Part shown: positions 19,082-45,303 of the stretch, piece by piece
Position numbering within the stretch: the first letter of the stretch is position 1
How the letters are laid out: every line of letters begins with the position of its first letter
Origin: Rhabditoides inermis
Lineage: Eukaryota > Nematoda > Chromadorea > Rhabditida > Rhabditidae
Assembly: GCA_963966185.1 (NCBI GenBank)
Contig: CAWZYM010000190.1
Location: forward strand, 438,311 to 502,310
Reading direction: 5' to 3'
Length of the DNA: 64,000 nt
Made by a program: the position numbers and the translations under genes
Notes under the pieces: generated by a model
Seen by the model: only the letters and a program-made list of their open reading frames with translations
Told to the model about the DNA's origin: nothing
Database searches by the model: none

Positions 19082-19189
19082 GAGAGGAGCAGGTTTGTGT
19101 TAGTATTTGTAAACGTTTTATGCATGCGCTTTTGTTGAATTGGGTCAAGACAAACTGACTCTCTTTACGCGAGTACTTTTAAGAGATAA
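18279..19189 (-). mobile_element. second-family Helitron-like insertion (911 bp, minus orientation)
   Basis: On the minus strand it begins TTATCTCTTAAAAG with the fold-back arms, passes through a GC-rich GA/CT segment (18480-18640) and ends with an 11-bp-stem hairpin (18281-18305 on +) followed by CTAA. The uninterrupted host, seen at 21137 in a sister unit, reads CTTAACA^TTCTTCTTG, so insertion was at A^T (minus strand) without target duplication. The ends match the 1,801-bp element at 15456 in kind, while the interior is mostly different. Confidence 0.6.
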
Positions 19190-19190
19190 T
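18882..19190. repeat. long inverted repeat (102-bp arms) around a GA microsatellite
   Basis: Arms 18882-18983 and 19089-19190 are reverse complements. The spacer holds a GA tract (about 19033-19086). Shared words with the arms at 15455 (AATTCAACAAAAGC, CATGCAT, ACAAACCTGC) make the two inverted repeats one family. Confidence 0.9.
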
Positions 19191-25116: not shown

Positions 25117-26860
25117 TCGCCCCGGCTGGGGCTATATAAAATTTGCTATGGTCCTTGTGGCTGGGGATTTCACAACATCTAGCTCAGTGACTATTACACC
25201 TACACAGCTCATACTCTAAACTTAACATTCTTATGGTGACCGCATGCAATCGTTTCATTTTCACGCTCACACCTCTACTTACCATATGACTTTACTAAAA
25301 ACTTGACATAGCCTAAAAAACTTTTCACCCATATGCTCAGTCCATGTTTCAAGATGTGAATCTAATACTGTAAACTTAGACTTAGCACGCTATATTGACT
25401 TGACACACGTCACTACGACTTATTCCGATAACTCCTTTTATGGGTTTATATAGAAATTCCAAAATTTCAGAAGGACATAACTCAAGACTGAAGAAACATT
25501 TCACACTCAAACTACAAACTTAATATCAACTAATCACTCTTAACATACACACACTAGCATAGGTTCCTATCTAATTTCCTTAAATGGGTTCACTAACAAC
25601 TCGGTCCACTTCTATGTAAACCTACCTTCAAACTTCATATTTTTTCATGAAACTAGCACAGTAACATGAAACATGCATGTTATTTACAGTTTTACAGTTT
25701 CATTTCGAAAAACCAGTTCAAAAAAGTTTTACAGCATTTTTCATTTTCTGACAGGATCAATCACGTAAGATGCAAAACGCAAAAACCTTGAATATCTTCG
25801 TTAGTTTCAAAGACTAAAATTTCAAACTTCAGCTGATGATAGAAGACACTTGGCCGTTCACACCATTTCAATTTCAAGTGAAATACTCATTCCGTTTTCA
25901 AAATATAAATATTCAAATTTTCGTAGAAATTTTACATTTTTGATCATAACTTCTTTCATTTTCGATATTAATTTTTCAAATTTTCATGGTAAATCACTCT
26001 CTATGACACAATCAACACAAACACGTATGCTCAACTCTATTACTGAAAATAAAAATCATATTTCATCATTCACTAGATCAACTGCAATCTCTTACTATCT
26101 AAGAGTTGAGACCTGGATTTCGCACAGTAATTCATAACTCAAAAACTAATATTCACTGACAAAGATTCAGATTTTTCGCTTCACTGTGGAAGGATTTCAC
26201 TTTTTCAAAAAACCTTGATTTTCAACCAAATGTGGCTCATTTTTGCAGTTGAGCATATTGACCGCTGACAGGATCAATCAGGTAAGATGCAAAACATAAA
26301 ATACAGTACAACTATGTTTCAACTTTATAGAAAAATGATTAATTATCTCATCCCTTTCACCAATGACACCTTAGGGTCTGAGTACCTGCCAGGTACCGTC
26401 TCACCTGTCGCCTCTCACATGTCACCTGAGATAAGTTAGCAAAAACTTCAAATTTCACTTTACGACCCTGTAACTTTCGTCTAGATGATAGTTGACACCT
26501 GGATTTTCCTATTTAATTATCACTACCGTAATACATTCAATCATGAATTATTTCAGATTTTTAATAAATGTTTAATTTTTTTTCCAATTTTCGTCTGTTT
26601 GAAACTGAAAATTGTACTAAAACTTATATCTCGTTTTGTTTTCAAGGTAGAACGTCCATACTTGGTACAAGTAACAAGTAAATGATTACATTTTTTTAGG
26701 TAAACAATTTATGTAAACAAGTAAACGAAAAAGTAAACAACTTCAATTATTCTAATTTTGATGTCTAAACTACACTAGAACAGTATGAGAGTTACAAAGT
26801 AGTGTTTACAAGTCAATTTAACAAATAAACAAATGTGTAAACACATGTAGTCATCGAAGC
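25117..26860 (+). repeat. non-coding left arm of the large element
   Basis: Homologous to the left 1.7 kb of the A units, with the paired CTGACAGGATCAATCA motifs (about 25750 and 26267) and GTAAACA clusters near 26697-26840. Homology fades just before a short palindrome at about 26853 (AGCCGTCCGGCT), after which the gene region starts. A short open frame at the left end starts at the ATG of TTTGCTATGG, as in sister units, but I do not support it as a gene. Confidence 0.7.
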
Positions 26861-26888
26861 CGTCCGGCTCACTTTCTTATCACTATAA

Positions 26889-26894
26889 TTTATT
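26889..26894 (-). terminator. AATAAA polyadenylation signal overlapping the stop codon
   Basis: On the minus strand the glycoprotein gene ends TAATAAA: the TAA stop (26893-26895) overlaps a canonical AATAAA hexamer. This gives a very short 3' UTR, a compactness common in viral and transposon genes. Confidence 0.6.
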
Positions 26895-28654
26895 AACAAA
26901 TATTACCGCCCACATTGTTGCGAAACTGGCGAACACATCTAACATACGGCATCACTTTCCACTTCAAATACACAACAACTCCGAGAAGCACTATTCCAAA
27001 CACAATCATACACGAAACGATAAGCGCAGATAGCCAATCAACAGAACTCCGAGAACGGCGAGTTTCCAGAGAAGGCAGCCGAGACGTCATAGGGCCTGTC
27101 AACTTTTCCACCTCTTCCGTCAGAACGTGCGGTTCACCCTGAAATAACATCTCTCTCTCCCTCTCTCCCTCCCTCTCTCTCTCTCTCATACACACATTTT
27201 CCTCCCCCTTCACGCACCATGTCAACATTCACTGTGAATGATTCAAATGAGAGTCCCTTCATCACTGTGTCTCCGCATTGCATGTCCTCGCCAACTCGCA
27301 GCTGCTTCACCAGTATTCCGGAACTGCCTACGAGAATGCGCTCTGTGCCACCCTCCAATCTAATCGTACACTCCTGAAAAGAGAACATTTGCACTAACAA
27401 AACAGACAATACTTACCTTTACTGTAGTCGCAATTACATAAACATCTCGAATCAGACGAACATGGGTGAAACTGTTGTTGTACTTCATATAATGCAATGA
27501 GCAAGCGGTTCCGAAATTGAGATGACTACAGTCGTTTGCCGATTGAATGGTACTCGGCACGCACTCAAAATCTCCTCCCGCCTGAATACACAACTACATA
27601 AATACATACCATGCAACGAATAAACTGTACCTTTTCAATGCATCCAGAAACTCCGATATGGCCTTCACTTTCACTGTCGAAACTGTACAAAGGAACGTCA
27701 TGGAAACTATATATTTTGTTCTTTCTATCCAGGAAACCGGTGTCCGCAAACTGCAAAACTGTTCATTCATTAAGTGTTCATGTAAAAATCATATTTCACG
27801 GACCTGGTTAAATACTCCAACTTTTCTCTGCCTGGCATCTTCAAAGGTGAGTGTAGTGTGAATACTAGAAGTGTTCACATCACAGCTGGAGACAACAGCG
27901 GAAATATCACGAACGGCTGCCAGATAGTTCAAACTGCCAGTGAAGTTCACAATGTCCTGAACACGTAATAACGTGATACACTAATCGAAACTGAAGAAAT
28001 ACTGAACTCACCGTAGGTAGATCACTGGCGAACGAACCTGCCAACTTATTAGCAATAAATAAAGAATACAATTCGCTGTTCAATCTCGTCGTTCCAATTT
28101 CCGCATGCAATTTCCTAAATTCATAATCACAATTTCACACACACACACACATCAATGTCACTTACGTTATGCTGTTTCTTGCATCCAGAACAGCTTCCTC
28201 CACGTTGTTGATTCTTCCGTTAAGTTCATGATAAGCGTACTGTTGAGAAATAGATAGGCCAACATTTATGATTTGCAGAAGAAAAATAATAGATCTCTTG
28301 TTACGTTTGATTTCAGAAACTGCCTTATGCGGGACTGAAATCAAATTAACATTTTAATTATTACAAAATTTTATGTACCTGTTGTACAATAGGCTTGCAA
28401 TGTTTTGTTATAGGCTTCCAGCATGAAATCATTCACATGAGAATACGAGAAGCGAAAAACGACATCAGCTTGCACGTAGGGACCCGCAATTCTAAATAGC
28501 CAAACAATTTATGCATGCATTTATATATGTAGACCATTGCTCACCTTGCTATTTTCCCACTATTGTGTAATTCGAGTAGTCCGTTGTTGAGCACACGAAA
28601 CGATGAGTGAATGGGAATCAGGAGCAAGAGGAGGAGAAGGCGTAAAATCATCAT
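26893..28654 (-). CDS. class I fusion-glycoprotein-like type I membrane protein (444 aa, 9 exons)
   Basis: Nine exons with GT-AG introns in one frame: 28654-28545, 28491-28379, 28334-28166, 28114-28012, 27956-27804, 27750-27631, 27581-27417, 27373-27218, 27138-26893. The product starts with a leucine-rich signal peptide (about residues 1-19). A furin-like R-N-K-R lies at 85-88, followed at once by a hydrophobic segment (about 89-104) and a polar, heptad-like stretch (about 105-150). It has four N-X-S/T sequons, scattered cysteines and a membrane span at about 399-421 with a short basic tail. This order is known from class I viral fusion proteins such as baculovirus F and errantivirus Env; 444 aa is near Env size. 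I see no stop or frameshift. The family is inferred from layout, not from recognised sequence identity. It diverges from the Rep-helicase gene. Confidence 0.72.
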
Positions 28655-29572
28655 ACTGAAACACTTAAATTAACAATCATCAACAGAAAAGTGCATTGTA
28701 CATAATAAAAAGTACATAATATAACAAAGAATGACACAGAAAAATTGTGCCTAAGTTAAAAAAAGCTCTTCCATGAGTGTGGTTGATTACGATATGAGAA
28801 CATTGAGAACGCGTCTGTTCTGCAGCAGACAGCACACGCCTCTGGTATTTCACAGTGCTCATTCAGATAGCGCGTCTTCAAAGGGTTTCCCAGCAGACAG
28901 CTTTCCCATTCCCCGTGGCAACATGACCTCATTTTACACATCCAGAAATAAGCGCAATCACGTCATTGCCCCGCCCCCAAAATGACGTCAGCCAATCATT
29001 TTGCACTACCGTATTTCTTTCGTATTATTTTTGCACTACCGTATACATTTCGTATTATTTAGTTCTGTTTTCAATGTTTCAATGAATATCGTAACACTAC
29101 TGCGTGTCAAAGATAAGTAAACATGTCACAAGCGCAATCACGTCATTGCCCCGCCCACTAAATGCCGTCAGCCAATCATATTGCACTACCGTATACCTCT
29201 AATATTATTTAGTTCTATTTTTAATGTTTTCATGGGATAAAAAAGACCACTGTGTCAATGTTGCATTGTTTTAAGTTTGAATACACATCTGCTCATTTAC
29301 ACAAGTCATGTATGCAGGTGCACGCGTTGTTCGATCTATCACGACATACGCTTCTGTTCTACAACAGACACAAATGGCCTCTGGTATTTCAGACTGCTGA
29401 GATAGCGCCTCTACAAAAGGTTTCCCAGCAGACGTATTCCCATGCCCCAGGGCAACATGACCTCTACGCAGACACAAACACGCGCCAAAACGTTCATTCA
29501 CATCTGTACACACATTTCCATAATATTGTTCACTTCTTACACCTTACACTGTTTCATTCATTTCCCTTCAGA
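28655..29572. promoter_or_regulatory. divergent promoter region with duplicated modules
   Basis: It separates two diverging genes. Module Y occurs at 28951 and 29131 (180 bp apart). Both copies hold a CCCCGCCC GC box, a CRE-type site (TGACGTCA at 28983-28990; TGCCGTCA at 29163-29170), an adjacent GCCAATCA CCAAT box and TTGCACTACCGTAT. A second block, X (28811-28930 and 29350-29464), flanks the pair, giving the order X-Y-Y-X, all in direct orientation. TATA-like words are GATAAAAAAG (29236) for the plus gene and TATATT (28723-28718, minus) for the minus gene. CRE plus CCAAT plus GC box suggests cAMP/stress-responsive or constitutive animal-type transcription. Confidence 0.6.
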
Positions 29573-29894
29573 ATGAGCAACATCGATAAACTCTTTTCGA
29601 AGATGTTTACGAGGGCTCGTGTACTGTGCGAAGTGAAGGTGAAGACAGGAAGGATCGAGAAGATGAACGGTGACTGTGTTGTCAACGCAGCCAACGTGGG
29701 ACTGATTCCCGGTGAGTGTTCATATCAGTTCCATTTCGATTACGTCCGTTTAGGTAGCGGAATCGACGGCGCGATTCGGAGGGCGGCCGGGAAGAAGCTC
29801 ACTGAGGAGACGAGCGCTCTCATGCAGAGCAGAGGGAGGAACCTCGACGTTGGAGAGGCAGTGGTCACCAAGGGTCACAAGCTGTGCAAGAGTG

Positions 29895-29934
<40 letters not shown>

Positions 29935-30461
29935 TCTCTTTCGCTCTCTCTCCCTCGCTTTTTCTGTTTGCGAAGTATTCCCCTGTTTAACTGTTCCTTT
30001 CAGGAATCATCCACGTGGCTGGTCCGTACGTGAATGAGGGCACGGTCCCCTCGCAGCACCAGTGTGACCAGCTCCGGATGGCGTACCGGAACGTGTTCCA
30101 GAAGGCGGAGGAGCTGAAGGTGCAGAGACTGGTGAGTACACAACACAAAAACAATTTCAAATTGGGTTTTGTTTCAGGTCGTGCCTTTTCTATCGATTGG
30201 AGTTTTCCATTTCCCCAAGGAAATGGGAGTGAAGATCGCGATGGAAGAAGCGTGGAGATTCAAGAATACGACCTCTGTAAGTCACACTAAAAATTGAATA
30301 TATGTTTCAACGTCTTTGCAGGCCGTGGAAGTGATTGTGTTGGTGTGCAGTGATGTTCACATCACACAACTCGCAGACAGCGACAACGAGCGTCGCTACC
30401 AAGAACAGTACGACCGCGTCGTGAGGAAGGTGCGAGAGGAGAACGCGCGCAAGATGCTGGA
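29573..30461 (+). other. macro domain (ADP-ribose binding), exons 1-5 of the Rep-helicase gene
   Basis: Exons 29573-29711, 29754-29891, 30004-30131, 30178-30276, 30322-30461. Macro hallmarks in order: a GD-type turn and VVNAAN (residues 36-41), GSGIDGAIRRAAG at the next exon junction, DVGEAVVTKGHKL, IIHVAGP and a late FPKEMGVKIAMEEAW helix. VNAAN and the glycine-rich loop form the ADP-ribose pocket of this fold in other proteins. Some macro domains remove or read ADP-ribose marks and occur in RNA viruses that counter host PARPs. Whether this one is a hydrolase or only a binder cannot be told here. I know of no standard Helitron with this domain. Confidence 0.85.
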
Positions 30462-30464
30462 GTG

Positions 30465-30515
<51 letters not shown>

Positions 30516-30661
30516 GCTTCTCAAATGTTCAATGCAGGAAAGTTGCGGCGGAGGATGAGATGCCGCCATTGGACAGAGTCATGGGCTTCGTCCAAGAGAT
30601 GATCGCAGAGAGAGGAAGCAGCATCGACCTTCTCTTGCCCATCAACACTGCTCTCGTAAGT

Positions 30662-30708
<47 letters not shown>

Positions 30709-31323
30709 TTCTTTCTCTCTCTTTCTCTCTCTCTCTCTCTCTTTCTCTCGTCAGTGCTCTCTCTCTCTCTTTCTCAAAATTGTTGTTTACAGAACAGCCG
30801 GCGACGTTTCCGCCACACGTTCGGAGCGACCGGAGCTGCGCAGATTATATCCATTCCTGAATCTCACAGTTACGCTGTTGCCATGTAAGCCAATATCAGA
30901 AATTGATAATATCAATGAAATGTAATCATGTCAGCTATGTGTCTGGGGAACACGTGGTAAGATACTACGATGCGTCTTTGATTGGATCGGATCGACCGGT
31001 GGACACTTGGGTTCGTGAAACATATTGATTTCTATCGTTTGTTCTCAATTCAGTTCAACGAGGAGACGATCAGACAGCTGGTGCACCTCTTCGGAGCACT
31101 GTTCGAGGATGCGCCGATTCGACTATCCGTCGATGTGGCAATCGAAGGATGCAAGAAGGTATTCTATTTATCACTTATTTTAAAATGCATTGGCTTGCAA
31201 TCATCTCTCAGTAATCATTTCATGCCTTGTCCATAATTTGTGATAATTTAAGGGCATTACGAGTCAAGAGTGGGCAGTCGCCACTCTCATCTGTGCACTG
31301 GGCGGTTGCGAGCCTGCCAGGTC

Positions 31324-31378
<55 letters not shown>

Positions 31379-32010
31379 TCTCTCTTTTTTCTCTCTTTCT
31401 TTCTCTCACTGTTATTTCTCATTCGTTTAGTCACTCCTGGAACGCCTCTCTCGTGAAGGAGGCGATGGCAGGTGCGCAGGCGAGGAAGGGAGACTGGGGC
31501 AGCTACGCCAATCTGTGTGATGTGCACAAGTGAGTCCACATCATTCATGTTGATATCACTGATCACAAGTTTCAGTCGCATTGTTCCGCGTGGCGGATTC
31601 GTCAATTTCGCTATTCACCAGGACAGTTTTTGTGCGGAGAAAACTAACAAGTGAGTATAGCGTATAAACTTCCATTCATTCTCATTTCTCTTAGGTTTGC
31701 GGCGCCTCAGAGGGAGATTGAGTATTCTGTGGAGAAGGAGACGAGTCCTGCGACTGTGAAGAAGGCAACTGCAATGGAGAAGAAGGAAGGCGGAAAGAAG
31801 AAGGGGACCAATCCGGAGATCGAGTACGTCTTGGACAGAGGAGCGAGACTGGTCAGTTGGTTCATCCTGTTGTCTTTCATTTATTGTTATATTCAGCCGA
31901 TGCACGGGGAGATGGCAGAGACGGAGTGTGTGGACAAGGCGTGTGAGTATCTGCAGAGGATCGCGCAGATGGAAATCGAAGGAGCGCAGATGGTCCAGAG
32001 TGTGATGGTA

Positions 32011-32066
<56 letters not shown>

Positions 32067-32316
32067 TGTTTTGTAGTTCCTGAACCGGGATGGTGCGATG
32101 CCGATTGTCCATCCGACTGGCACGCTTCCGGCCATCCAGATACACCACCACGAGAAGTTTCAGCACTACGTCATCACCTCGTGAGTACTACACAATTACA
32201 ATACCACATTGAAATGCATTGTATTCAGATATGATCCGGAGAAGCACGTTGTGAAGATCTATGATAGCACGATTGATAACAAGGATAGCGTGGAGGATTA
32301 CGTGAGTTTCTCTTCT

Positions 32317-32370
<54 letters not shown>

Positions 32371-33464
32371 CTCTCTCTTTCTCTCTCTCTTCCTTTCTTT
32401 CTTTCTCTCTCTCTCTTCCTTTCTTTCTTTCTCTCGCTCTCCCTCCCTCTGTCCTTCTCTCTCGCGTAGGCAATGAAAAAGCAACACAAAGAGATTATTC
32501 TACATTATCATAACAGAACGTACACTATCACAACCTCTTTTCTCGTTTTTTGTGGTGCACAGTTCACATTTCACAGTTCACATTTAGTTGATGGACTGTC
32601 TTCCGTTGCGTAAGCAGATCCAGTTCGTGTACAGAGACGTGTTTCCGGGAGAGGACATTCGCATCGCAGTGGAGACGGATTACGACTGCCAGAAAGTGAG
32701 TGCATTATTATTTCAAATAGTTGCAAACTTGTTTTAAAAAATCCAACTACTGATTGTTGCAGGACGACTGGAGTTGTGGCTTCCGGTGTCTGGGTGTGTT
32801 TATTGCGCTTCTTCGCGGTGACGACCCCGCCAGGTAAGTACTTATCATCTTGTGTTTTATTATGATTTGTTCAGAATCGTCTGGAATCGGCATGCTCTCT
32901 GTACTCTGATGACTGATGCGATGCAGAACAAGTACTCGTGGTCTCACTACAACAGTGCCGTTCTCGGAAGGTGATACATGTAGATACCATTCCATATATT
33001 CCAACACGTCTTCTATACAACTACATACACACACACACACACACATATCATATAAATTGTGAAAGTTGTTTTCTTTCAGTCATCGAGATCGACGGACCAC
33101 TCAGACTGAATCCCTTTTCCATTTCCGCCTCAACCAGCGCACTTTCGTTGTCACTTCGACTGATAACAAGTATGTTCATTTGTGTTTTTTTCTGTTTTTT
33201 TCATTGCGTTGATTGCTTAGGGATGTCGAGCGGGGACGACTGAGGGGAGCTCTGACCAGGCGGGAAGCGAGACGAGAGAGGACACCGTCACCTGTGTTCA
33301 TGGAGCTGGACAGAGAGGAGATAGAGAGTGTCGCCTCGAGTGTGTCTTCTGTCACGTCTTCTGTTACATCGACTCCCAGAAGTGGACGAAAGCTGACTCC
33401 GAGGCAGAAGAAGGACCTGCAGAATGAGCGAAAACGACTGTCGCTATCAAGAGGTATCTCTTCT

Positions 33465-33508
<44 letters not shown>

Positions 33509-34107
33509 CTCTCTCTCTCTGGAAGAGAGAAAGTTTCTCTGTGTATATAAAACCTCTTTGCAGAAAGCGCTGAACAGAGAGAGGCACGATTGAAGCGAAA
33601 TCGGGAATACAAAGAAAACAAACGTGCAGATGGTGAATATTATATAATTTTTAAATGTACTGTTTTGAAAATATTTTTTCAGAAACGCCTAAGAAGAGAG
33701 CTAAACGACTCTTCGATAAATCTTCGGAATGGACGGAAAGAATAGAACAAGGTAGTATCAATATCCATAATTCTTATTGCGAATTTTTCTCATTTGCAGA
33801 GGAAGAAGAACATCGCGTAAGGAGATTGGAGAAAAAACAGATACGATCCCATCAACGTCGCGCATCTGGTATGTGAATTACTTTATTATGATTTGTGTTT
33901 ATTCTTCTTTTTTCAGAGACTGAAGAAGAACATGCAATTCGCCTCCGAAAACAAGCTGATCACGATCTTGTGATGCGCCAAACAAGTACGTTGTATGAAA
34001 CATAGTCGTACTCATTTGCACTAATCTCATTTCAACTCTAGGTTCGTATGACAAGAGTGAGGAGGTGAACGAGCGACGCGCGGCGCAGAGGCATGCTCCC
34101 AAACACC

Positions 34108-34170
<63 letters not shown>

Positions 34171-34398
34171 TGCAGCCGGCTTCTTCGAGAGCTACGAGGG
34201 AGTGGAGCAGCACGACTGTGGAGACTTCACCGTAGCGTGCGAGTTCTGTGGAGCAGTCTACCTGGAGGGAGAGTCGCAGTCCGTCAAGTGCTGCCTCGCT
34301 GGCAACTACAAGCCGACCGACTGGGCAGAGAGGCCGGCAGAAGTCAAGGAGATCCTCGGAGCAATGTGGGTTGCGGGAGAGACAGAAAGAGAGAAGGG

Positions 34399-34465
<67 letters not shown>

Positions 34466-34577
34466 CAAGTTGTTTCAGGCTGGTGCAGAACAACTCCGTT
34501 GAATTGAATGCAAACCTTGCGCTGGCATCAATCAACCGAACGTCGCGAGATGTGAAAGGAGGAGTCTTTGCAAGGAA

Positions 34578-34622
<45 letters not shown>

Positions 34623-34826
34623 CTCACTGATTGCAGACACAAGGCGCGCCGTCCCACTCGCTGTCGTCTGCCATCCCCCGTTTCGCAGACCAGCCTCTGA
34701 TGTACGGACAGAGGTGGTTCGGAGACGGACTGTACCCGGACATCAGATGGTCGGAGAAGTACGGTAGATACATGCTTGGCAAGAAGGGACTCAGCCACGT
34801 GCAGGGCAGGAATCTCTCTCTGGTTC

Positions 34827-34883
<57 letters not shown>

Positions 34884-35343
34884 GTGTAAACGTCTAGGCT
34901 CTCGACCGACTCGCGGAGGTGTTGAGGGAGTGGAACCCGTACGTGAAGATGTACGTGTCGGAGGGGGAGAAGTCGCGCGGAGTGCCGAGGAGTGCGATGA
35001 AGACCCGCTGGCTGGTCATCCACCACGACTACGTCACACTCCAGCAGAGGGCGGATCCCGATGTGCACAAGGTGAGAGGCACTTTCTTTGATGACTGATT
35101 CTCTTCGTTTCCAGGGCGCGTACAGCAGACTGAAGGAGGGAGACGTGGTTCTCCTGGCGCAGACAGACAAGGAGGGACGGCCGCTGGACACTGCCAACCT
35201 CTCTGTCGAGTACATCCACACCGGCCGAAAGAGGGAGATCCCCCACTTCAGGTGAGTTAACAGAGAGAAAGAGAGAGGGAGAGAGAGAGAGAGAGAGAGA
35301 GAGTGAGATATAGAGAGATAGAGAGAGTGAGTGAGTGAGTGAG

Positions 35344-35391
<48 letters not shown>

Positions 35392-35661
35392 GAATACTGT
35401 ATTGATTGTAGCCCGCTGGTGGACCCGCTCTGCTATATTCTCATCCATGTGATGGGTGAGTCTGGCTACGACCCGCGTGCCCCTGGAGTGCGGCCGCAGC
35501 TCGCCCCTCTCAAGGACAAGAGACTCGGAGTCGCGCCCAGTGAGTTGCCAATGTACTGTTCCCCATTTGCACTTTCTGTTTCAGCTGACCGCTCATGTGG
35601 ACCGCGCCGCGGGACGGAAGAGCAGGAGCAGGAGGAGGAGGAAGGTATACTATTTCTCTCG

Positions 35662-35716
<55 letters not shown>

Positions 35717-35917
35717 GTATGCGTAATGTCTAATGTCAATTTGTCAATATATAGAGCGTGAGATGGACCATGACGAGGGTGACGTCATAGTAGAAGGAGA
35801 AGCTCCGGAGCGACTAGTGCAGGAGCAGGCGGAGCCATGCGGAGAAGAAGAGATGCTTCTACAGGACGAAGAAGGATTCCGGATTGGTGAGTCTCTCTCT
35901 CCCTCTCTTTCTTCCTT

Positions 35918-36003
<86 letters not shown>

Positions 36004-36494
36004 CTTCTCTGTTTCTCTCAAATTCATGTTCACTATCAGATGTGGGAGTGGAGGGACCAGTAGACGACACTGGAACGGAGATGGCAGATGAGCGTATGGA
36101 GGAAGACGAGGAGGATGAGAACGAGGGAGACTACGGTACAGTGATACAGTGTATAGATTATAAAGAACAAACAGAATATTGAACTCGGTCCAAGTAGCAT
36201 TACAATACAGTTGTGTGGAATCGTCAGGATACAGTAAAATAATTCAGTAATATAACGCTCAATGCATGATAATATATAACGGATTTCGATAGTCGCGTAA
36301 CTTTCTGCTTGTGGCTTCTAGAGAAATGAACTTTTGATGATTGATTTTCAGCTCCCCGCAACTGCAATGAGCCCGGAGAGGCGACTGTGAGAGCGAGCCG
36401 CGCCATTCGGACCAAGTCTCTCCTCACCAACGACAGAGACTTCTTCGGCGACATCGACCAGACAGTGAGTCTCTCTTTTTCTCTCTCACTCTTT

Positions 36495-36534
<40 letters not shown>

Positions 36535-38002
36535 TCACTCACAAACATACAACATACTGTCTAGGAGGAGTCTTCTTTCGTTCGCCCACAACTGCCACGC
36601 AATCGCTCTGCATCTGGCCGCAAGATTCGAGAGCACAAGCAAGAAGGTACGTCATCTTGATTTGTGAAAGAATGAGTTCATTACATTTATAGATTTTGTA
36701 ACACACCTTTTTTTTGAAACTGAGACACATCATTATCGAAACCAAGAAAACTTTAAAATAATACAGATAATAAAATAAGTCATGAAAATGAACATCACGT
36801 CTATATATATATATTTTTTTTTGAATTTTGCAGTCCGTACTTCGTGCATGTCTCGCCGGGAGGAGATGGTGTTCAAGATTAGGACGACTGAGAAGAACCT
36901 GGAGGAGCAGTCCCATCCGATCTTCTCTATGCTCGGACTGGGGCAGTTGTATGTGGAGGACCAGCACATGCGCATCATCCGCGCACAGTGAGTAGTACTG
37001 TATACAGTAGTCGTGTGTAGAAGATGACAGAACAGAACAGAATATTTATCTCGAATCAAATACATAGAACATTATAACACGTATATTACGGTACGGTTAC
37101 GGTAAAATACAGTAATGCAACGCCTACTGCGACTTCCATTAGATCAATAGCACGGATCTCGGTAGTACAGTGTATGCGTACGCGCTATTAGTAACCCATA
37201 TTGTAGACACGACTTCACGAAGATGCATCATGTGGAGAAGAGGACGATGTCAATTCAGGAGGTACGAATCTCTCTTTCTCTCTTGCTCTCCATTCTCTCT
37301 CAATCTCTCGCTCTCTGCTCTCGCTCTCTCTCTTTCTCACACAATTTTCTCTTTCCCTCTTCCGCTTCAAGACTTCGTTTTCAGATGCGTGAAGAGGTGG
37401 CACGTCTGAAGCAGAATCCTTCGAGGGAGAACAGGGCAACCATCCACCAGTCGAATGCGTTCCTTCGCTACAGGGACGCCGCCACCAAGCTGCGAGTCGA
37501 CCTCGGAGCTATTGTGAGAAAATAATTACAATGAAAATTCTGCTATTGAAAAGTAGCAATCACAAAAATATAACGAAAACACACAACACACAAATTAGAA
37601 AAAGTAGTATTGAAAAAAAGAATCCTTAAAAAAATAGCAATCACAAATTATCAAAAATACATTAGCATTTACTAATTCGTGCTCTTGTTTCAGTTCCTTG
37701 CGAATGCTGCTGTGAAGGGATCTCCGCGGTACATGAGGATGCAGGCAGAGAGGGCGACTGTTGTGATGAATGAGGTCGGATCGCCCGATCTCTTCATCAC
37801 ATTCACAGGTACAAGAAGGGAGAGAGAAAAGAAAGATAGAGAGAGATGAAGAAAGAGAAATAGAGAGAGTATACATTTTTCATTTCGTTCACTAATTTAA
37901 ATGTATAGGAAGTCCGGTGTGGGCAGAGATTCAGAGGAACCTGTTACCCGGACAGCGATGGGTGGACGCCCCGGATCTGGTCAATCGAGTGAGTATGGGA
38001 AG

Positions 38003-38057
<55 letters not shown>

Positions 38058-38473
38058 AAGAGAGAGATGAACTGTTTTTTTGCAGATCTTCTACATGAAG
38101 ATGCACGCGGTATTGGACAAGATCATTCTGGAAGGCGCGTTCGGAGAGGTGCTGGCCTATGCGTGGTCGCTCGAGTTCCAGGCCCGTGGCATGCCCCACA
38201 TTCACCTTCTCCTCACACTCAAGGTGCGTCTCTTTCTCTCTCTCTCTTTCTCTTTCTCTCTTTCTCTCTTTTTCTCTATCGTTCTGTTTGATATTTATAG
38301 GAGAAGCTGAGCACTGCGGAGAAGGTGGACCGGTTCATCAAAGCGCAGATCCCGAGTGAACTGGAGCCGGTGCTGCGAGAGAAGGTGCTGCGTCTCATGT
38401 GCCACAAGCCCTGCAGCCACACCGACAAGAAGGGAGTCTTCCACCCGCACAAGGACGAGTTCTGTCGGTGAGT

Positions 38474-38518
<45 letters not shown>

Positions 38519-39472
38519 AGGGGACATGGACTGTTGTGCAGAGTGGACGCGCAGCACCCGGAGGCGAGGCAGTGCGGCAAGGGCTTCCCGAAGCCGTTCT
38601 CCGAGTACACGGTGATGCGTGAGAATGGCTACGCGGAGCCTGCTCGGCCGAAGGGACCGTGGGTGGACACTCCCCGCAAGTACCAGGTCAACAACCAGTG
38701 AGTGCATTCCCCATGGGTACTGTAGTAAACACTTATGTTCAGGTGGGTCGTGCCGTTCAACCCGCGTATGCTGATGGAATTCGACTGCCACGTGAACGCA
38801 GAAGTCACGTCGTCAATCTTCTGCGCCAAGTATATGTACAAGTATATATTCAAGGTGTGTCAAATATTATTTTTATTTACTTTTAATCTGAATCATTCAC
38901 GCAATGTGTTACAGGGTTTCGACAGGGCTATGTGTGAGCTGATCGACAGCGCCATGGTCAACGACGGGAGCCACGCGGGAGTGCCGGAGTTCGCCACCTT
39001 TCAACACGTGAGAAAGACACAGAGATATAAGAAACATGAGAGCGAGAGAGAAAGCAAGTAAAGAGAGAAAGAGTGAGAGTGAGAGAGAGAGAGAAAGAGA
39101 GAGAGAGAGAAAGAAAAAGAGAAAGAGAGAGAGAAAGAGAGCAAATGCAAACTTCTAGTGCGTCATTCCATCTTCTCTGGATCTGAATGAGACCCAGCGC
39201 GAATATATGGACCAGAGTGCGCAGAAGCTGCTCCGCGACCTCCAGGTAAGAACTGCGCACAGACTTTATTTGATTTTACGTTTGAATGACTTCATTGTAT
39301 GTTTCAGATAAGCCCCGAGGAGGAGGTGATCAACGAGGACGGAACGACGGAGAAGGTGAAGAACGTGGTTCTGGACGAGTTCAGCCAGTTCACTACTCGC
39401 ATGGCGATAACTGCCCCGCAGGCCGTGTGGGGAATCCGCGACTGGGAGATCGCCAAGGTGAGTGGAGAGAGA

Positions 39473-39518
<46 letters not shown>

Positions 39519-39872
39519 AGGCGATATCGAGATTGTTTTAGATTTCGCACCACGTGGACTTTGCGAGTGTGCACCTTCCGAAGAGGGCTCCGCTGGTGTT
39601 CGACAAGGACGCGGACTATGAAGAGGTCAGAGCACACAGCACATCTGTGGAAAGGGAACAATCTAAATGTCTCTTTCCAGCTGTTGGCTGAGGCAGACGA
39701 GGGAGAGGCGCAGTCGATCACGGAGGCGTGGCTGGAGCTGAACAAGGAGAACGATCTGGCCAGGCGGTACACCATCCGAGAGGGAATCAAGCACTTCCGG
39801 ATCATCAAGAAGGGACACGGGTACAAGTGGGCTCCGAGGAACAAGAAGCAGCGCATTCACCCGGTCAGTCTA

Positions 39873-39927
<55 letters not shown>

Positions 39928-40461
39928 ATCTAATCAGTTTTAGCCGATCCTCCGTCTGCGCTCCGTGTGTCCTTCTCGCCGCGAAAAGTACGCTCTCCGT
40001 CTTCTCTTCAACAATGTGGCCGGAGCCCGCAGTTTCCCGGAACTCGCGACCACCGTAAGTTCTCTCTCATTATCTCTCGCAATCTCTCTCCTTCTGTCGC
40101 TCTCTCACTATCATTTTCTATTTTAGGACGATGGCCGTCAGTGTTCGACATTCTCGGAGGCGGCAGCGGAGAGAGATCTTGTGACGAGTGACCTGCAGCT
40201 GAAGAAGGCTCTCTCTGAAGTGGCAGCGGACGCGCCTCCTCGAAAGGTCGCACTCTTCTTCGCTCAGCAGCTCGCGAACACTGGACCCAGCAAGGTAAAA
40301 TAGACAATCTCGAATCAGTATCAGAATATTTATCTCATCAATTCTAGGATGCTCCCGCGCAGATGCTTGCAGAGAACTGCGATGCGATGTTCCTCGCTCC
40401 CGCCAAGACGGAGAAGGACAGGACGCGACTGATGAACATGCTCCTCTACTCTCTCCAGGTG

Positions 40462-40501
<40 letters not shown>

Positions 40502-41539
40502 TCTCCCTCTCTCCTTCTCTACGTCAGACATTTACAGAAGATGTTGTCGTGGTATGACTGTGATCTGGAGCAGTTCGGTCTGCCCCTCCCTGATCGCTCG
40601 TTCGTGCCGCAGCCGGAGAGCAGGAGAGGATCGAAGGAGTACGACTACGAGAATGACGTCATCCACACTCCGCCCACCAACTTCAACCTCATGGACAAGA
40701 CGAGTGTATGTTATCTCTCTTTTTCTCTCTCTCTCTTTATCTTCTTCTTTCTCATGTTCAATACACTACTTACAGAAGCAATTGAATGGTGAGCAGAAAA
40801 AGGTCTACGACCACATTCTCCGCAAGTTGAGCGGTGGATTCGACAGGCGACCGGAGATCGTTCTGGGATCCGGCGGATGTGGCAAGACCACTCTCTTCCG
40901 AGCTCTCGTCTACGCTGCCATCGACAAGAACATGAAAGTAAGAGAACATGAAGGATGAACATGAAAGAACATGAAAATATATGACGATATGTATGATTCA
41001 TTTGTCTGTTTGTAGGTGGCGTGTCTCGCGTACACTGGATGCGCGGCCCATCTCCTGCCAGCTGGAAGCACTCTCCACCGCTTCTTCTGGCTGAATCGGA
41101 CTGCTGACGGGACTCTCTACTGCAAGATCACTGGACGCAGCGTCAAGGAAAGCAAGCTGCGAGAAGTGAGTGACAAGGGCAACACATGACACTATACACT
41201 ACATACGAGTAGAAATACAAACGTAATCTAAGCATTTTACAAACATATGGTTTATTCACAACATGTTTTTGTTATGACAAAAAATACTCACTCATAAAAT
41301 ACTTAACATCGCTGCAACTTATTCAGATCGAGCTGTTTCTGATTGATGAGATGTCGATGCTGGATCGGGAGCTGATCAATCTGATCGACGCGGTTCTGAG
41401 GAAGGCGACTGGAGTGAACAAGTTCTTCGGAGGAAAGCTCGTGGTCTTTGGAGGAGACTACAGACAGGTAGGGAGAGAGAAGAGAGAGATAGGGGAGAGA
41501 GAAGAAAGAAAAGAGAAGAGAATGAGATAGAGGGAGAGG

Positions 41540-41575
<36 letters not shown>

Positions 41576-42055
41576 TCTTTTCAGATTCTTCCGATCATCC
41601 AGGGTCTGGAAGGAGACGAGGTTCTGGTGGAGTCTCTTCTGCAACACCCTCTCTGGAGGGTCAGTCGCAAGTCGTGGCTCACTCAGAACATGCGTGCCAA
41701 GGAAGACAAGGACTATGCCGCTCTCGTCTACCACATCGGAAACGGAACTCCGGATCTCACTGCCAAGGTAAGTCGCCGCTCGTTATTCCTGTCACTGGTA
41801 GACATGATCAAATTTAGACATTCACTCAATAATGCAAAAGTAAGCGATTGTGTGAATATTTTACTCTAGAAGTTATATTGATTATTTGCAGGTGTGTTCT
41901 GGCTGCTTCCCGATCTTCAAGGACTCTGCCTCGGATGTGATCAAGTGGACGTTCAACAAGATGGAAGATGAGAAGAAGAGGGTCGGCAGCTGTCTCCTCG
42001 CCATCACCAACGACGAAGTCAACCAGCTCAACGAGGAGGTACGCATCATATCACT

Positions 42056-42115
<60 letters not shown>

Positions 42116-42343
42116 TCTTCTTTATTTTTTTCTATCAACTATGTAACATTGAATAATCCACTTGTATTTGTAGGTTCTCGCGCTGCTTCCTCTCTCGAAG
42201 AAGAAGGTGGATGGCTACTTGGACCACGTCTACCTCTCCATCGACACTCCGGACTCGACTGGTGGCATGCAGCTCTCACCCGAAGACTGCCACACCCAGT
42301 GTCCTGCCGGTCTGCCACCTCACTCTCTTCATCTCAAGGTAAG

Positions 42344-42390
<47 letters not shown>

Positions 42391-42657
42391 GAGGGAGATA
42401 GAGATTTCAATTCAGCTGGGAGCCACTGTGATGTTGATCAAGAACATCGACGTGAGGCGTGGACTGACGAATGGCACTCGTCTCATCGTCCGCAAGATGG
42501 TCAGTTGTCTGATATGCAAATATCACATATTACTTTTCACTTCTCACTATTCATTTTTATGTGTTTTAATTGTATTTTTTTCAGCGGGAGCATTCGATCA
42601 TGGTGCAGCGGATCGGAGATGCGACGGGAGAGACTTACGAACTCGGAAAGTGAGTGA

Positions 42658-42698
<41 letters not shown>

Positions 42699-42963
42699 GA
42701 GGGAGATAGAGATTTCAATTCAGCTGGGAGCCACTGTGATGTTGATCAAGAACATCGACGTGAGGCGTGGACTGACGAATGGCACTCGTCTCATCGTCCG
42801 CAAGATGGTCAGTTGTCTGATATGCAAATATCACATATTACTTTTCACTTCTCACTATTCATTTTTATGTGTTTTAATTGTATTTTTTTCAGCGGGAGCA
42901 TTCGATCATGGTGCAGCGGATCGGAGATGCGACGGGAGAGACTTACGAACTCGGAAAGTGAGT

Positions 42964-43007
<44 letters not shown>

Positions 43008-43054
43008 AGAGAGAGAGGGAGAAAGTGAGAGAGAGAGAAAGAAGGAGAGAAAGA

Positions 43055-43089
<35 letters not shown>

Positions 43090-43705
43090 AGAGAGAGAGA
43101 GAGAGAGAGAGAGAATTTCTTCTATATCTCGATCAAACAATCGTGTATTCAGGATGCTTCTCCAGGACGCGGATCCGAGGAAGAGTCTCTTCACTCGCTT
43201 CCAGTTCCCTATTCGTCTCGCGTTTGCGATGACGATCAACAAGTCGCAGGGAGCAACGCTGGACAGGGTGAGTCTCTCTCTCTCTCTTTCTCTCTCTCTC
43301 TTTCTCTCTCTCTCTCTATCCTTTCTTTTTTTCTTTTCTCCTTCTCACTTACGAATTTTTTTTTATTGTAGGTGGGACTGGTTCTGTCGAATCCGGTCTT
43401 CACTCATGGTCAGCTCTTCGTGGCGATGAGCAGGGTTCGGAGGAGGAAGGACATCGCCATCTACACTGCCATGAAGGTAAGAGAGAGAGAGAGTGGGAGT
43501 GGAGAGAGAGAGAAAGAGAGAAAGAGTGAAAGAGTTAAACAGTCTCTTCTTCCAGTCGATCGATGGAGAGAAGTCGTGTGGGAAGCACCACGCTCGCATC
43601 TACCAGCTGAAGAACATCGTCTACCCGGATGCCGTGCAGGCGATGACCCCGCCCAAGACTCACACCGTTGACCACAACTTGGATGTGGAGGAGGATGACC
43701 AGTGA
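29573..43705 (+). CDS. macro / C48-like protease / Helitron Rep-Pif1 helicase polyprotein (about 2,595 aa, about 66 exons)
   Basis: A single frame can be followed through about 66 coding exons with GT-AG introns and matching phases, ending in TGA at 43703. Domain order: macro (1-182), degenerate C48-like domain (215-425), basic linker, intact C48-like protease (479-695), Arg-rich 23-aa repeats (774-887), zinc finger (about 902-927), Helitron pre-Rep region, HUH Rep (about 1354-1960) and Pif1-family helicase (2108-2595). Helitron RepHel proteins are usually about 1,300-1,600 aa, so about 900 N-terminal residues are extra. The start at 29573 is the first ATG fitting the macro domain; TTTCCCTTCAG just before it suggests a 5' UTR intron. 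The frame is open further upstream to 29252. One exon pair near 42.4-43.0 kb is duplicated. It should act in the nucleus, replicating and moving the element by rolling circle. Confidence 0.9.
30538..31650 (+). other. degenerate C48/Ulp1-like domain (exons 6-12), predicted inactive
   Basis: Exons 30538-30655, 30793-30884, 30935-31010, 31054-31158, 31254-31321, 31431-31529, 31576-31650; residues 215-425. It aligns exon by exon with the protease domain that follows, with intron positions and phases matching. The acidic residue survives (D297 in RYYDAS). The position of the catalytic His holds Ser280 (a His sits one residue earlier), the oxyanion Gln is Lys344, and the nucleophile region reads ITSQEW with no Cys. 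It is thus probably a structural or binding pseudo-protease. Naming it C48-like rests on its likeness to the second copy. Confidence 0.6.
31695..31851 (+). other. basic linker exon (exon 13)
   Basis: Residues 426-478, rich in Lys and Glu (VKKATAMEKKEGGKKKG), with no fold signal; it joins the two protease-like domains. Lysine clusters could serve as a nuclear localisation signal. Confidence 0.5.
31897..33169 (+). other. C48/Ulp1-like cysteine protease domain with intact catalytic residues (exons 14-20)
   Basis: Exons 31897-32007, 32077-32180, 32229-32301, 32588-32695, 32763-32833, 32875-32970, 33080-33169; residues 479-695. The triad order of the Ulp1/adenain clan is present: His545 (FQHYVIT), Asp562 (KIYDS) and Cys615 (WSCGF), with Gln609 (DCQK) at the oxyanion position six residues before Cys. 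Some Helitron-type elements carry cysteine proteases, commonly OTU. This domain may mature the polyprotein or remove SUMO/ubiquitin-like tags. Large intron microsatellites sit at 32007-32076 and 32302-32460. Confidence 0.7.
33221..34107 (+). other. Ser/Arg-rich segment and 23-aa repeat exons (exons 21-26)
   Basis: Exons 33221-33453, 33564-33632, 33683-33751, 33800-33868, 33917-33985, 34042-34107. Exons 22-25 are each exactly 69 bp and phase 1-1, each coding one 23-aa repeat of the pattern E-(S/T/E)-x(2-3)-R-x-x-R-L-x-(K/R), charged and helical; exon 26 is a 66-bp (22-aa) variant. Similar E/R-rich repeats are common ahead of the zinc finger in transposon proteins. One repeat per symmetric exon points to growth by exon duplication. 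Confidence 0.75.
34176..34365 (+). other. Helitron-type zinc finger (exon 27)
   Basis: Residues 888-950. The pattern C909-x2-C912 followed by C926-C927, with C902 and H900 nearby, matches the Cys-rich finger found upstream of the Rep domain in many Helitron proteins. It probably binds DNA, possibly the element's ends. Confidence 0.6.
34479..36646 (+). other. pre-Rep Helitron region and acidic insert (exons 28-37)
   Basis: Exons 34479-34578, 34637-34822, 34898-35071, 35115-35251, 35412-35539, 35585-35644, 35755-35886, 36040-36135, 36352-36464, 36565-36646. Exons 30-32 carry the conserved pre-Rep signature (REWNPYV ... GDVVLLAQTDKEG ... FSPLVDPLCYILIHVMGESG). Exons 33-35 form an acidic insert (EEEQEE-type, residues about 1193-1288) that looks disordered. 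Confidence 0.7.
36834..40054 (+). other. HUH-type Rep (rolling-circle endonuclease) region (exons 38-52)
   Basis: Exons 36834-36987, 37207-37261, 37385-37513, 37694-37808, 37909-37988, 38086-38223, 38301-38467, 38542-38697, 38743-38854, 38915-39007, 39159-39245, 39308-39457, 39542-39625, 39681-39863, 39944-40054. Signatures: KGSPRYMRM then PDLFITFTG; the HUH metal-binding motif H1569-I-H1571 in MPHIHLLLTLK; and the tyrosine motif KYMYKYIFKG (Y1715, Y1719, with Y1717 between). Post-Rep blocks ITAPQAVWGIRDW, HVDFASVHLPKRAP and LRLLFNNVAGARSF are typical of Helitron proteins. The nucleophile tyrosines and metal ligands are present, so the endonuclease is predicted active. Confidence 0.9.
40127..43705 (+). 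other. Pif1-family helicase region (exons 53-66)
   Basis: Exons 40127-40294, 40348-40458, 40538-40705, 40776-40937, 41016-41165, 41327-41467, 41585-41767, 41892-42038, 42174-42338, 42416-42499, 42585-42649, 43153-43267, 43372-43476, 43556-43705, with a second copy of the 84/65-bp exon pair at 42724-42807 and 42893-42957. Motifs: Walker A GSGGCGKTT (K2144), Walker B LFLIDEMSM (D2218, E2219), GGDYRQ, LTQNMRA, INKSQGATLDR and FVAMSRVRRR. All core motifs of a 5'-3' superfamily 1B helicase are intact. It unwinds DNA during strand transfer. Confidence 0.92.
42351..42965 (+). repeat. 308-bp tandem duplication containing two helicase exons
   Basis: The segment with exons 42416-42499 and 42585-42649 is repeated 308 bp downstream (42724-42807, 42893-42957), apparently without differences. 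Both breakpoints lie in GA tracts. Using all four exons breaks the frame, since the first pair ends in phase 2 and the next exon needs phase 0; one pair, or the mixed first-of-one/second-of-other pair, keeps it. It is either a recent slippage or unequal exchange, or an assembly duplication. Confidence 0.85.
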
Positions 43706-44327: not shown

Positions 44328-44820
44328 TTAAGGAATGGGAGAAAGAGAGAGAAGCAGGGAAGGGGACGGGGCATCATCCGTCTGACAGCCGACGTCCCTG
44401 TGTCCCTTGAAGAGAGAGTCGTTGTGCTTCTCCGCGAACATCTGCAGTTCTGCTCGCACGCCACGGCGCACAGCATCCGACACTCCGCGGGCGACCTAAA
44501 AAATTTATTACATTACTTATAGCTTGATTTTGATCATATCGTAACATCATATATCTAACCTGGTTCCTTGAGTAACACTTGTACATTCCGATGCAGCAGG
44601 AACAGAGGATAAAGAATACCCCGAGAGCAGAGAGGGCGGCTTGGAACTGTCCAGTGGCGTACCAGGGGATGGAAGGGGTGGGCCAGGGGAGAGAAGTGGC
44701 GATTTCAGGGTGAAAAGAGATATCACCGGGGAGATGACGCGTCGAATCAAGACGGATCGGATGCGCACAGCACATCGTGACGAGGAGAGAGAGAAGGAAC
44801 AGAATAATGTGAGATGCCAT
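44328..44820 (-). CDS. small type I membrane protein, unknown family (142 aa, 2 exons)
   Basis: Exons 44820-44560 and 44495-44328, GT-AG intron, both in phase 0. The ATG at 44820 gives a clear signal peptide (ASHIILFLLSLLVTMCCA); the frame stays open upstream to 44925, but that start would bury the signal. A short ectodomain with a Pro/Trp-rich patch (SLPWPTPSIPW) is followed by a membrane span at about 58-80 that ends in Cys-Cys, a possible palmitoylation site, and then a cytosolic tail of about 60 residues. I do not recognise the family. With the fusion-protein-like gene it makes two secretory-pathway proteins in one element, so an accessory surface or budding role is conceivable but unproven. 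Confidence 0.6.
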
Positions 44821-44999
44821 TGTGAAATGATCTCTTCGTTGACACAACTGCCTTTTATGACATTGTGTTCCCGCGCGAATAGACTGCTCCGTCACCTTTG
44901 TGCCCTCCGGTATAGCCCTTATCACATACTCACATAATGATTGTCATACCCATGTCACATGTGTTGTTATGTGAGTGCAACTGAAAAAAAAACAGCGAC

Positions 45000-45045
<46 letters not shown>

Positions 45046-45260
45046 CGAGAGAGAGAGAGAGAGAGTTTGAGAACTGTTGATTGATGATGTTTACTAGTTA
45101 TGTACAGTAGTAAACGATATAGTAAACAAGATATACTTCACTGAAAACATTCTGATAACTACAAATAACATTTGTACATTCGTGCGACAACCGTTAAAAT
45201 TATGAGTTTATTTTCGTGGAGCAACATTCTCTCAGTCAAATTCTGATTTCACCTGTACAT
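44821..45260. other. non-coding right arm of the large element
   Basis: Holds a GA tract (about 45006-45066), three GTAAAC words near 45090-45140 like those of the A units, and AT-rich sequence up to the terminal hairpin. I see nothing coding apart from an open upstream extension of the minus-strand gene. Confidence 0.5.
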
Positions 45261-45303
45261 CTAGCGGGGCGCGAGCGAGCGAAGCGAGCGCGCGCCCCGC
45301 TAG
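45261..45303 (+). other. 43-nt terminal hairpin closing with CTAG (right end of the large element)
   Basis: The 13-bp stem CTAGCGGGGCGCG pairs with CGCGCCCCGCTAG across a 17-nt loop containing GCGAAGC. Its length equals that of the hairpins ending units A1-A4 and B1, although the stem sequence differs with compensating changes. The next base is T, followed by CCACCGCC of the 883-bp array. Confidence 0.8.

What the first reader, a model, noticed from the sequence alone, without database searches (positions are those of the whole stretch)
25117..45303. Helitron-like element carrying an envelope-type glycoprotein, a second membrane protein and a macro/protease-extended Rep-helicase
Seen: three intact spliced frames lie between a TC...TATAAAATTTGCTATGG left end and a CTAG-closed hairpin right end shared with adjacent non-autonomous units. 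Known: Helitrons encode Rep-Pif1 proteins, and Mavericks and errantiviruses show that transposons can gain fusogens. Inference: this is a rolling-circle transposon with virus-like cargo, possibly able to move between cells or hosts. I know of no described Helitron with this set.
Basis: partly seen in the sequence, partly recalled or inferred. Interest (0 to 1): 0.95.

Follow-up and report, generated by a model that had tools for sequence, protein, structure and literature searches.

The report
Helitron carrying a virus-like envelope gene
A rolling-circle jumping gene in an unnamed eukaryote carries, between its own exact ends, two membrane-protein genes, one predicted to be a virus-like membrane-fusion protein, and a diverged pair of the same two genes lies between the inverted repeats of a second, likely unrelated transposon, so mobile DNA might use this pair to pass between cells.

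Summary
Window 25117-45303 is a 20-kb rolling-circle element (Helitron superfamily) in a 172.6-Mb eukaryotic genome. It begins with TC and ends in a hairpin closed by CTAG. The right end is exact in five copies, the left end in six. It encodes a Macro/protease-like/HUH-Rep/Pif1 protein (62 predicted exons), a 444-aa type I glycoprotein (gp) and a 142-aa membrane protein (mp). gp has the layout of a class I fusogen: signal peptide, one R-x-K-R site, hydrophobic segment, heptad helix, C-terminal transmembrane segment. No sequence relative was found in Pfam, PDB, a word-based search of 5.8 billion proteins, or IMG/VR. Four Helitron copies hold gp at the same place, under purifying selection (dN/dS 0.18-0.22 against the window). 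gp was lost at least twice. New here: a diverged gp-mp pair (up to 43% and about 30-33% aa identity) lies, gp before mp, between inverted tandem-repeat arms of a TIR-type element without Helitron Rep. The eight gp loci found all lie in these two contexts (one of them beside a single arm); no plain host copy was found at this sensitivity. That gp fuses membranes and moves DNA between cells is inferred from layout only.

The parts
25117..25151 (+). left (5') terminus: TC, short GC hairpin, TATATAAAATTTGCTATGG
   Evidence: exact in 6 copies; 39-mer 123 hits, control 0
25117..26843 (+). left arm shared with the 2-kb non-autonomous units
26893..28654 (-). gp: 9-exon gene, 444-aa predicted type I glycoprotein with class I fusogen layout (exons 28545-28654, 28379-28491, 28166-28334, 28012-28114, 27804-27956, 27631-27750, 27417-27581, 27218-27373, 26893-27138)
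28168..28332 (-). gp segment with the R-N-K-R site, hydrophobic stretch and most of the heptad block
28809..29464 (.). gp/Rep divergent intergenic region with duplicated promoter-like modules (TGACGTCA once, CCAAT and CCCCGCCC twice)
29573..43705 (+). Rep gene, 62 predicted exons: Macro - protease-like region - Helitron_like_N - Pif1
   Evidence: HUH and two-tyrosine motifs aligned
29573..30276 (+). exons holding the Macro domain (PF01661, E 2.8e-28)
38086..39007 (+). exons with the HUH (MPHIH) and tyrosine (KYMYKYIFKG) motifs
40776..43705 (+). Pif1 helicase exons
42349..43001 (+). 308-bp tandem duplication of two predicted Rep exons, absent from C98
44328..44820 (-). mp: 2-exon gene, 142 aa, predicted signal peptide and one transmembrane segment
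45261..45303 (+). right (3') terminal hairpin closed by CTAG
   Evidence: DNA fold -22.2 kcal/mol, z -4.75; same in 5 copies

Best explanation
Window 25117-45303 is one copy of a Helitron-superfamily rolling-circle transposon that carries gp and mp as its own genes, and gp is predicted to be a class I membrane fusogen that, with mp as its likely partner, would help the transposon's DNA pass from cell to cell. Shown: the same ends in several copies, the three genes inside them, HUH, tyrosine and Pif1 motifs, purifying selection on gp, mp and Rep, absence of gp from some copies, and a diverged gp-mp pair in a second repeated element. Inferred: Rep nicks and copies the element by rolling circle. 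gp is made at the cell surface, cut at R-N-K-R, and inserts its hydrophobic segment into a neighbouring membrane, with the heptad helix driving fusion. mp assists or regulates gp. Joined cells let DNA or DNA-protein intermediates enter new nuclei, for instance from soma to germ line or rarely between individuals. The pair was selected as cargo because spread by contact adds to spread by inheritance.
For: Ends and copies. Domains: Macro PF01661 2.8e-28, Helitron_like_N PF14214 3.5e-37, PIF1 PF05970 6.7e-31; catalytic motifs aligned with seven Rep relatives. gp layout: strongly hydrophobic at 1-24 and 394-429, a single R-x-K-R at 85-88, best heptad block within 110-139 with all a/d positions hydrophobic and 1% of 200 shuffles as good; the exon piece around it models as one helix, pLDDT 96.7, single sequence. 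Selection: gp window/C109b 29 synonymous to 18 non-synonymous changes, dN/dS 0.18, p 4e-8; window/C98 0.22; window/C109a 0.19 over 256 codons. mp against the diverged C341 copy 0.25, p 1.4e-4. Rep 0.14 and 0.16. gp-lacking copies nest among gp-bearing ones. gp-mp recurs as a same-strand pair in another repeated element, with the mp intron at the same place.
Against: No sequence similarity of gp or mp to a known fusogen, Pfam family (only sub-threshold DUF2905 for mp), PDB chain (gp), PHROG, protein cluster (gp) or IMG/VR contig. The stretch behind the cleavage site is hydrophobic but below the transmembrane-level cut-off used. Of at least 12 close Rep copies, 8 have no gp match in the genome-wide search, so gp is not needed in every copy. 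The window copy's Rep has an exon duplication. I modelled no fourth gene and saw no capsid-like one, but made no dedicated search. No expression data. mp is nearly identical between window and C98 because the last 1.7 kb is 97-100% alike, so only the C341 comparison bears on its selection.
Confidence: 0.55

Rival explanations
1. gp and mp are a pair of host (or old viral) surface genes captured twice, by this Helitron and by a TIR-type element, and serve another purpose: adhesion, signalling, or shielding the host cell against other elements or viruses.
For: Helitrons are known for gene capture (passages of PMC6431247). gp and mp have introns, and gp has lower GC than Rep (0.438 against 0.54-0.57) and short introns of 43-79 bp, which fits a separate nuclear origin. 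No fusogen similarity.
Against: No plain host locus of gp was found: 20 of 20 candidates scored, and all 8 loci lie in the two transposon contexts, one of these with an arm on one side only; a host copy too diverged for this search is not excluded. The same two genes occur as a pair in both contexts. Cleavage site, hydrophobic stretch and heptad block follow one another in fusogen order. PMC6431247 (passages) calls capture of full-length host genes by Helitrons exceptionally rare.
Confidence: 0.27
2. gp-mp is a selfish toxin-antidote-like or superinfection-exclusion pair that keeps the element in the population rather than moving it between cells.
For: Two-gene unit kept by two kinds of element; Maverick cargo genes in nematodes came to light through toxin-antidote elements (one passage of PMC10680173).
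Against: gp is broken or cut while mp is kept in C98 and C109a, and mp is deleted in C410a; a killing pair would make losing one part alone costly. The layout fits fusion better.
Confidence: 0.1
3. gp and mp do not belong to the element: they are neighbours caught between nested or truncated Helitron ends, moved by segmental duplication.
For: The left arm (25117-26843) is shared with separate 2-kb units, the element lies inside an array, and in five of six copies a related unit also stands in front.
Against: gp sits at the same place inside the ends in 4 copies; flanks differ at the exact ends; C410b joins the same left end straight to 29266, showing that the region between is interior; coding constraint has lasted since the copies diverged.
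Confidence: 0.04

Closest known systems
Helitrons (canonical)
   Same: 5' TC, 3' CTRR (here CTAG), HUH Rep with two tyrosines, Pif1 helicase, tandem arrays, non-autonomous partners
   Different: hairpin is about 43 nt and runs to the very end rather than 16-20 nt about 11 bp inside; 61 predicted introns; Macro and protease-like N-terminal extension; gp and mp genes
Helentrons / Helitron2 (with OTU or VTD proteases and AP endonuclease)
   Same: extra cysteine-protease-like region beside RepHel (PMC9741609 and PMC6431247, passages)
   Different: no endonuclease domain found by Pfam; the protease-like region matched neither Pfam nor PDB; CTAG and TC ends
Nematode Mavericks with a putative fusogen
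   Same: DNA transposon carrying a predicted fusogen (one passage of PMC10680173)
   Different: Mavericks have DNA polymerase, integrase and capsid genes; none was seen here
Errantiviruses and the env-bearing planarian Burro elements
   Same: transposon with an envelope-type gene (PMC6431247, passages)
   Different: retrotransposons; no sequence link of gp to their Env found here
sORF2 of Drosophila MDG1-group retrotransposons (FAST-like)
   Same: mp is a small single-pass protein of similar size; element-coded membrane protein for cell-to-cell passage (PMC11952523, abstract and section 8)
   Different: mp has a predicted signal peptide; homology not tested; no capsid seen in this element

Membership tests
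Helitron superfamily / canonical Helitron | 5' TC | tested here: met
   6 of 7 assessed left ends; C87 unclear
Helitron superfamily / canonical Helitron | 3' CTRR | tested here: met
   CTAG in 5 of 5 right ends seen
Helitron superfamily / canonical Helitron | 16-20 nt palindrome about 11 bp from the 3' end | tested here: not met
   hairpin present but about 43 nt and flush with the end (definition from passages of PMC4067079)
Helitron superfamily / canonical Helitron | insertion between A and T without target duplication | tested here: inconclusive
   array starts at A|T in a 159-bp satellite whose empty 15-mer occurs 52 times; base before TC is A in C109a and C109b, G in window, C98, C410b, C341; no host-side right junction of this element seen
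Helitron superfamily / canonical Helitron | HUH Rep with two tyrosines fused to Pif1 helicase | tested here: met
   the join of the two parts rests on predicted exons
Helentron | C-terminal AP endonuclease | tested here: not met
   no such domain in nine Pfam-scanned pieces of Rep, C-terminus included; about 90 residues of a repeat-rich predicted stretch and the doubled exon region were left out
Class I viral fusogens (by layout; recalled) | signal peptide, basic cleavage site, hydrophobic peptide, heptad repeat, C-terminal TM | tested here: met
   (the peptide behind the cleavage site is below the TM-level cut-off); helix model
Class I viral fusogens (by layout; recalled) | sequence homology to a known fusogen family | tested here: not met
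Class I viral fusogens (by layout; recalled) | trimeric fusogen fold and fusion activity | not testable with these tools
TIR / foldback-like transposon (second context of gp-mp) | inverted arms of tandem repeats around the cassette | tested here: met
   C89, C112, C176 on both sides; C87 on one side
TIR / foldback-like transposon (second context of gp-mp) | a transposase | tested here: inconclusive
   no MULE, rve or Helitron_like_N match at these loci; other families not searched or not answered

The most novel reading that the evidence does not exclude
A portable two-gene membrane-fusion cassette (gp plus mp) was taken up by two unrelated kinds of DNA transposon in one genome, a rolling-circle Helitron and a terminal-inverted-repeat element, and makes them contagious between cells without any capsid: the first 'infectious' Helitron.
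Probability: 0.35. Interest if true: 0.97.

Novelty: new variant of a known kind. Interest (0 to 1): 0.86.

Why it matters
Helitrons are known for horizontal transfer, but my paper searches (listings, and passages of the papers named) showed no Helitron-coded means for it. A fusogen-like gene kept under selection inside a Helitron, with its partner gene, and the same pair in a second kind of transposon, makes that question directly testable: one protein, one fusion assay, and a comparison of related genomes. It would also show that DNA transposons without capsid genes can carry envelope-type genes.

Tried and rejected
Genes outside the element: rejected by copies with the same ends and changing flanks. 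Maverick or LTR retrotransposon as second context of gp-mp: no rve match at those loci (150 of 164 candidates scored); the PF03175 polymerase search did not complete, so a Maverick is not excluded by that route. Mutator: 3 matches genome-wide, none there. gp relatives in IMG/VR: 3 stretches matched a pattern, none confirmed; mp: none. Macro-RepHel fusion elsewhere: 5 hits, PARP14-like or other macro proteins. Protease-like region against PDB: nothing credible. mp dN/dS against C98 (2 and 1 changes) was dropped as evidence because the whole 3' 1.7 kb is 97-100% alike. The GT-AG count of predicted introns is true by construction and is not used. A paper search on sponges and microsatellites gave nothing used.
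Full report
What was claimed.

Setting. The window is C190:438311-502310 of an unnamed eukaryotic assembly of 172.6 Mb in 599 contigs. The contig ends with the window (C190 is 502310 long). The element sits in an array: a 159-bp satellite (1-9816), then non-autonomous units, many of about 2 kb, the 20-kb element, then 22 starts of an 883-bp unit up to the window's end.

Ends. The right end is a hairpin that is closed by CTAG at 45303 and folds at -22.2 kcal/mol (z -4.75, 0 of 200 shuffles as good). In five copies (window, C98, C454, C410a, C109a) the sequence is the same up to CTAG and then changes to the 5' end of another Helitron-type unit. These followers are of four kinds: C410a and C109a have a similar one, with 3 extra bases in C410a. 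The left end, TC followed by a short GC hairpin and TATATAAAATTTGCTATGG, is exact in six copies; in a seventh (C87) it is unclear. In five of the six the tail of a related non-autonomous unit stands in front, cut at different points; only C341 has unrelated sequence there, and in that copy part of the stretch between the end and Rep reads N. The terminal 39-mer (up to 3 mismatches) has 123 genome matches, its backward control none. The array begins at A|T in the satellite, whose uninterrupted 15-mer is present 52 times in the window. No copy shows this element's right end against plain host DNA.

Genes. Rep (29573-43705, +): a script gene finder gives 62 exons and 2546 aa. Pieces of it hit Macro (2.8e-28), Helitron_like_N (3.5e-37) and PIF1 (6.7e-31); the other pieces hit nothing over its cut-off. 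The HUH and two-tyrosine motifs align with seven relatives. A protease-like region, read by eye from its H, D and C-G-F-R-C spacing, has no database support. Relatives of the Rep-helicase part are 24-41% identical (39 proteins among 7992 scored; named ones from insects, plants, a fungus, an aphelid and a coral). None of five hits to the N-terminal part is a Helitron (3515 candidates within the tool's length limits). gp (28654-26893, -): 9 exons, 444 aa. mp (44820-44328, -): 2 exons, 142 aa. The window copy has a 308-bp tandem duplication of two predicted Rep exons that C98 lacks.

What gp looks like. It has strongly hydrophobic stretches at 1-24 and 394-429 only, one R-x-K-R site (85-88), four N-glycosylation sequons and 11 cysteines. 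Directly after the cleavage site come a less strongly hydrophobic stretch and the best heptad block of the protein (within 110-139, all a and d positions hydrophobic; 1% of 200 shuffles reach this). A 55-residue piece with these parts models as one continuous helix (pLDDT 96.7, single sequence); this is weak evidence by itself. That this order is that of class I fusogens is recalled knowledge. No family, PDB chain or protein cluster matched; the 5.8-billion search is word-based and misses remote relatives.

Copies and selection. From, whose list is cut, I count at least 12 Rep copies with parts at least 88% identical in protein, window included. Full gp without stops: window and C109b. Full gp with one premature stop: C98. 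First 256 residues: C109a. Remnant of 59 bp: C87. Absent: C410b, where the left end is joined straight to 29266, and one C409 copy, where about 0.6 kb of room is left. The others were not read over the gp place, end with the contig, or read N; the genome-wide search gave no gp match there. Against the window, dN/dS of gp is 0.22 (C98), 0.19 (C109a) and 0.18 (C109b), each with p below 3e-7 by a simple binomial test; these pairs share the window and are not independent. Among the others it is 0.20-0.34. Rep gives 0.14 and 0.16. mp gives 0.25 against the diverged C341 copy, p 1.4e-4, with its intron in place. In a tree of a Rep segment of about 940 bp from 8 copies, gp-lacking C410b falls in a clade with C98 and C109b (100% support) and gp-lacking C409 in one with C109a (92%), so gp is best read as ancestral to these copies and lost at least twice; other nodes are weak.

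The pair elsewhere. The genome-wide gp search (20 of 20 candidates scored, 37 matches) finds eight places: four Helitron copies and four diverged relatives at C87:1.42 Mb, C89, C112 and C176, at 35-43% identity. mp relatives (30-33%) lie beside three of these (C87, C89, C112), on the same strand and after gp. The mp relative beat 100 block shuffles (40.8 against at most 26.2 bits) and has its intron at the same place. No Helitron_like_N match lies near them (85 of 85 candidates scored). A DNA search with 801 bp around the C89 mp gene showed that its far end is a repeat of about 34-35 bp which recurs inverted some 3.7 to 4.4 kb away on the other side in C89, C112 and C176, and on one side only in C87. 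The same arms flank other stretches without gp or mp matches (C94, C28, C36). I read this as a foldback-like TIR transposon with gp-mp as cargo; its transposase is not known (no MULE there; no rve). So the gp loci found lie in or beside two kinds of mobile element and none in a plain host locus, at the sensitivity of this search. A last mp match, C20 at E 0.48, is not counted.

Mechanism. Rolling-circle copying by Rep is inferred from motifs and ends. Helitrons pass through a circular intermediate (passages of PMC6431247). On such a circle gp would be followed by mp on the same strand 2.3 kb on, the order seen in the second element; this is an observation on the map and not a test. The most likely use of gp and mp is fusion of neighbouring cells, so that transposon DNA reaches new nuclei. 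This fits known cases in other transposons: a putative fusogen in nematode Mavericks (passage of PMC10680173) and sORF2 in Drosophila retrotransposons (abstract and section 8 of PMC11952523). The shared promoter-like modules between gp and Rep suggest joint expression. All of this is inferred.

Against it. gp has no known relative, half of its Helitron copies are damaged, 8 of at least 12 close Rep copies show no gp match, and nothing about expression or transfer could be tested.

Known or new. In full-text searches for Helitron with envelope, fusogen, glycoprotein, Macro domain and related terms no listed paper, judged by titles, abstract starts and the passages named here, describes such an element; listings were capped, and 'Helitron' with 'macro domain' gave 0 papers. 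The library holds open-licence papers only. The element fails one feature of canonical Helitrons (place and size of the palindrome; passages of PMC4067079) and lacks the endonuclease of Helentrons in the pieces scanned. I therefore call it a new variant within the Helitron superfamily, with a cargo pair not described in what I searched.

Holding the report against the calls changed these points: number of kinds of right and left neighbours, identity ranges of the second pair, spacing of the arms, the Pfam cover of Rep (one search added), and the argument against the toxin-antidote rival.

Noticed in passing
45304-64000: 22 starts of an 883-bp unit in tandem, each with the Helitron 5' end but no hairpin at the junctions looked at; further arrays elsewhere in the genome.
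   Followed up: partly
29573-43705: Rep has 61 predicted introns; 24 of 61 hold runs of at least 10 GA or CT units, while gp introns are 43-79 bp, mostly without such runs. Other Helitron Reps in the genome are open frames of about 1900-2850 aa.
   Followed up: partly
9817-25116; also L041, L046: Non-autonomous units whose 3' hairpin (CTAG...CTAG) is present in most copies and cleanly missing in others at an A|T, as if the hairpin were a separable piece.
   Followed up: no
43600-45303: The last 1.7 kb is 97-100% alike between window and C98 while the rest of the element is mostly less alike: recent exchange of the 3' end.
   Followed up: partly
L039 (C410a) 238846-241885: Long open frame that looks like a Penelope-like reverse transcriptase, next to this Helitron copy (read by eye).
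   Followed up: no
L034/L035 (C87): Mariner-like sequence where gp would be in this copy (read by eye).
   Followed up: no
28809-29464: Duplicated promoter-like modules between gp and Rep, with a third short copy near 44104-44133 close to mp.
   Followed up: partly
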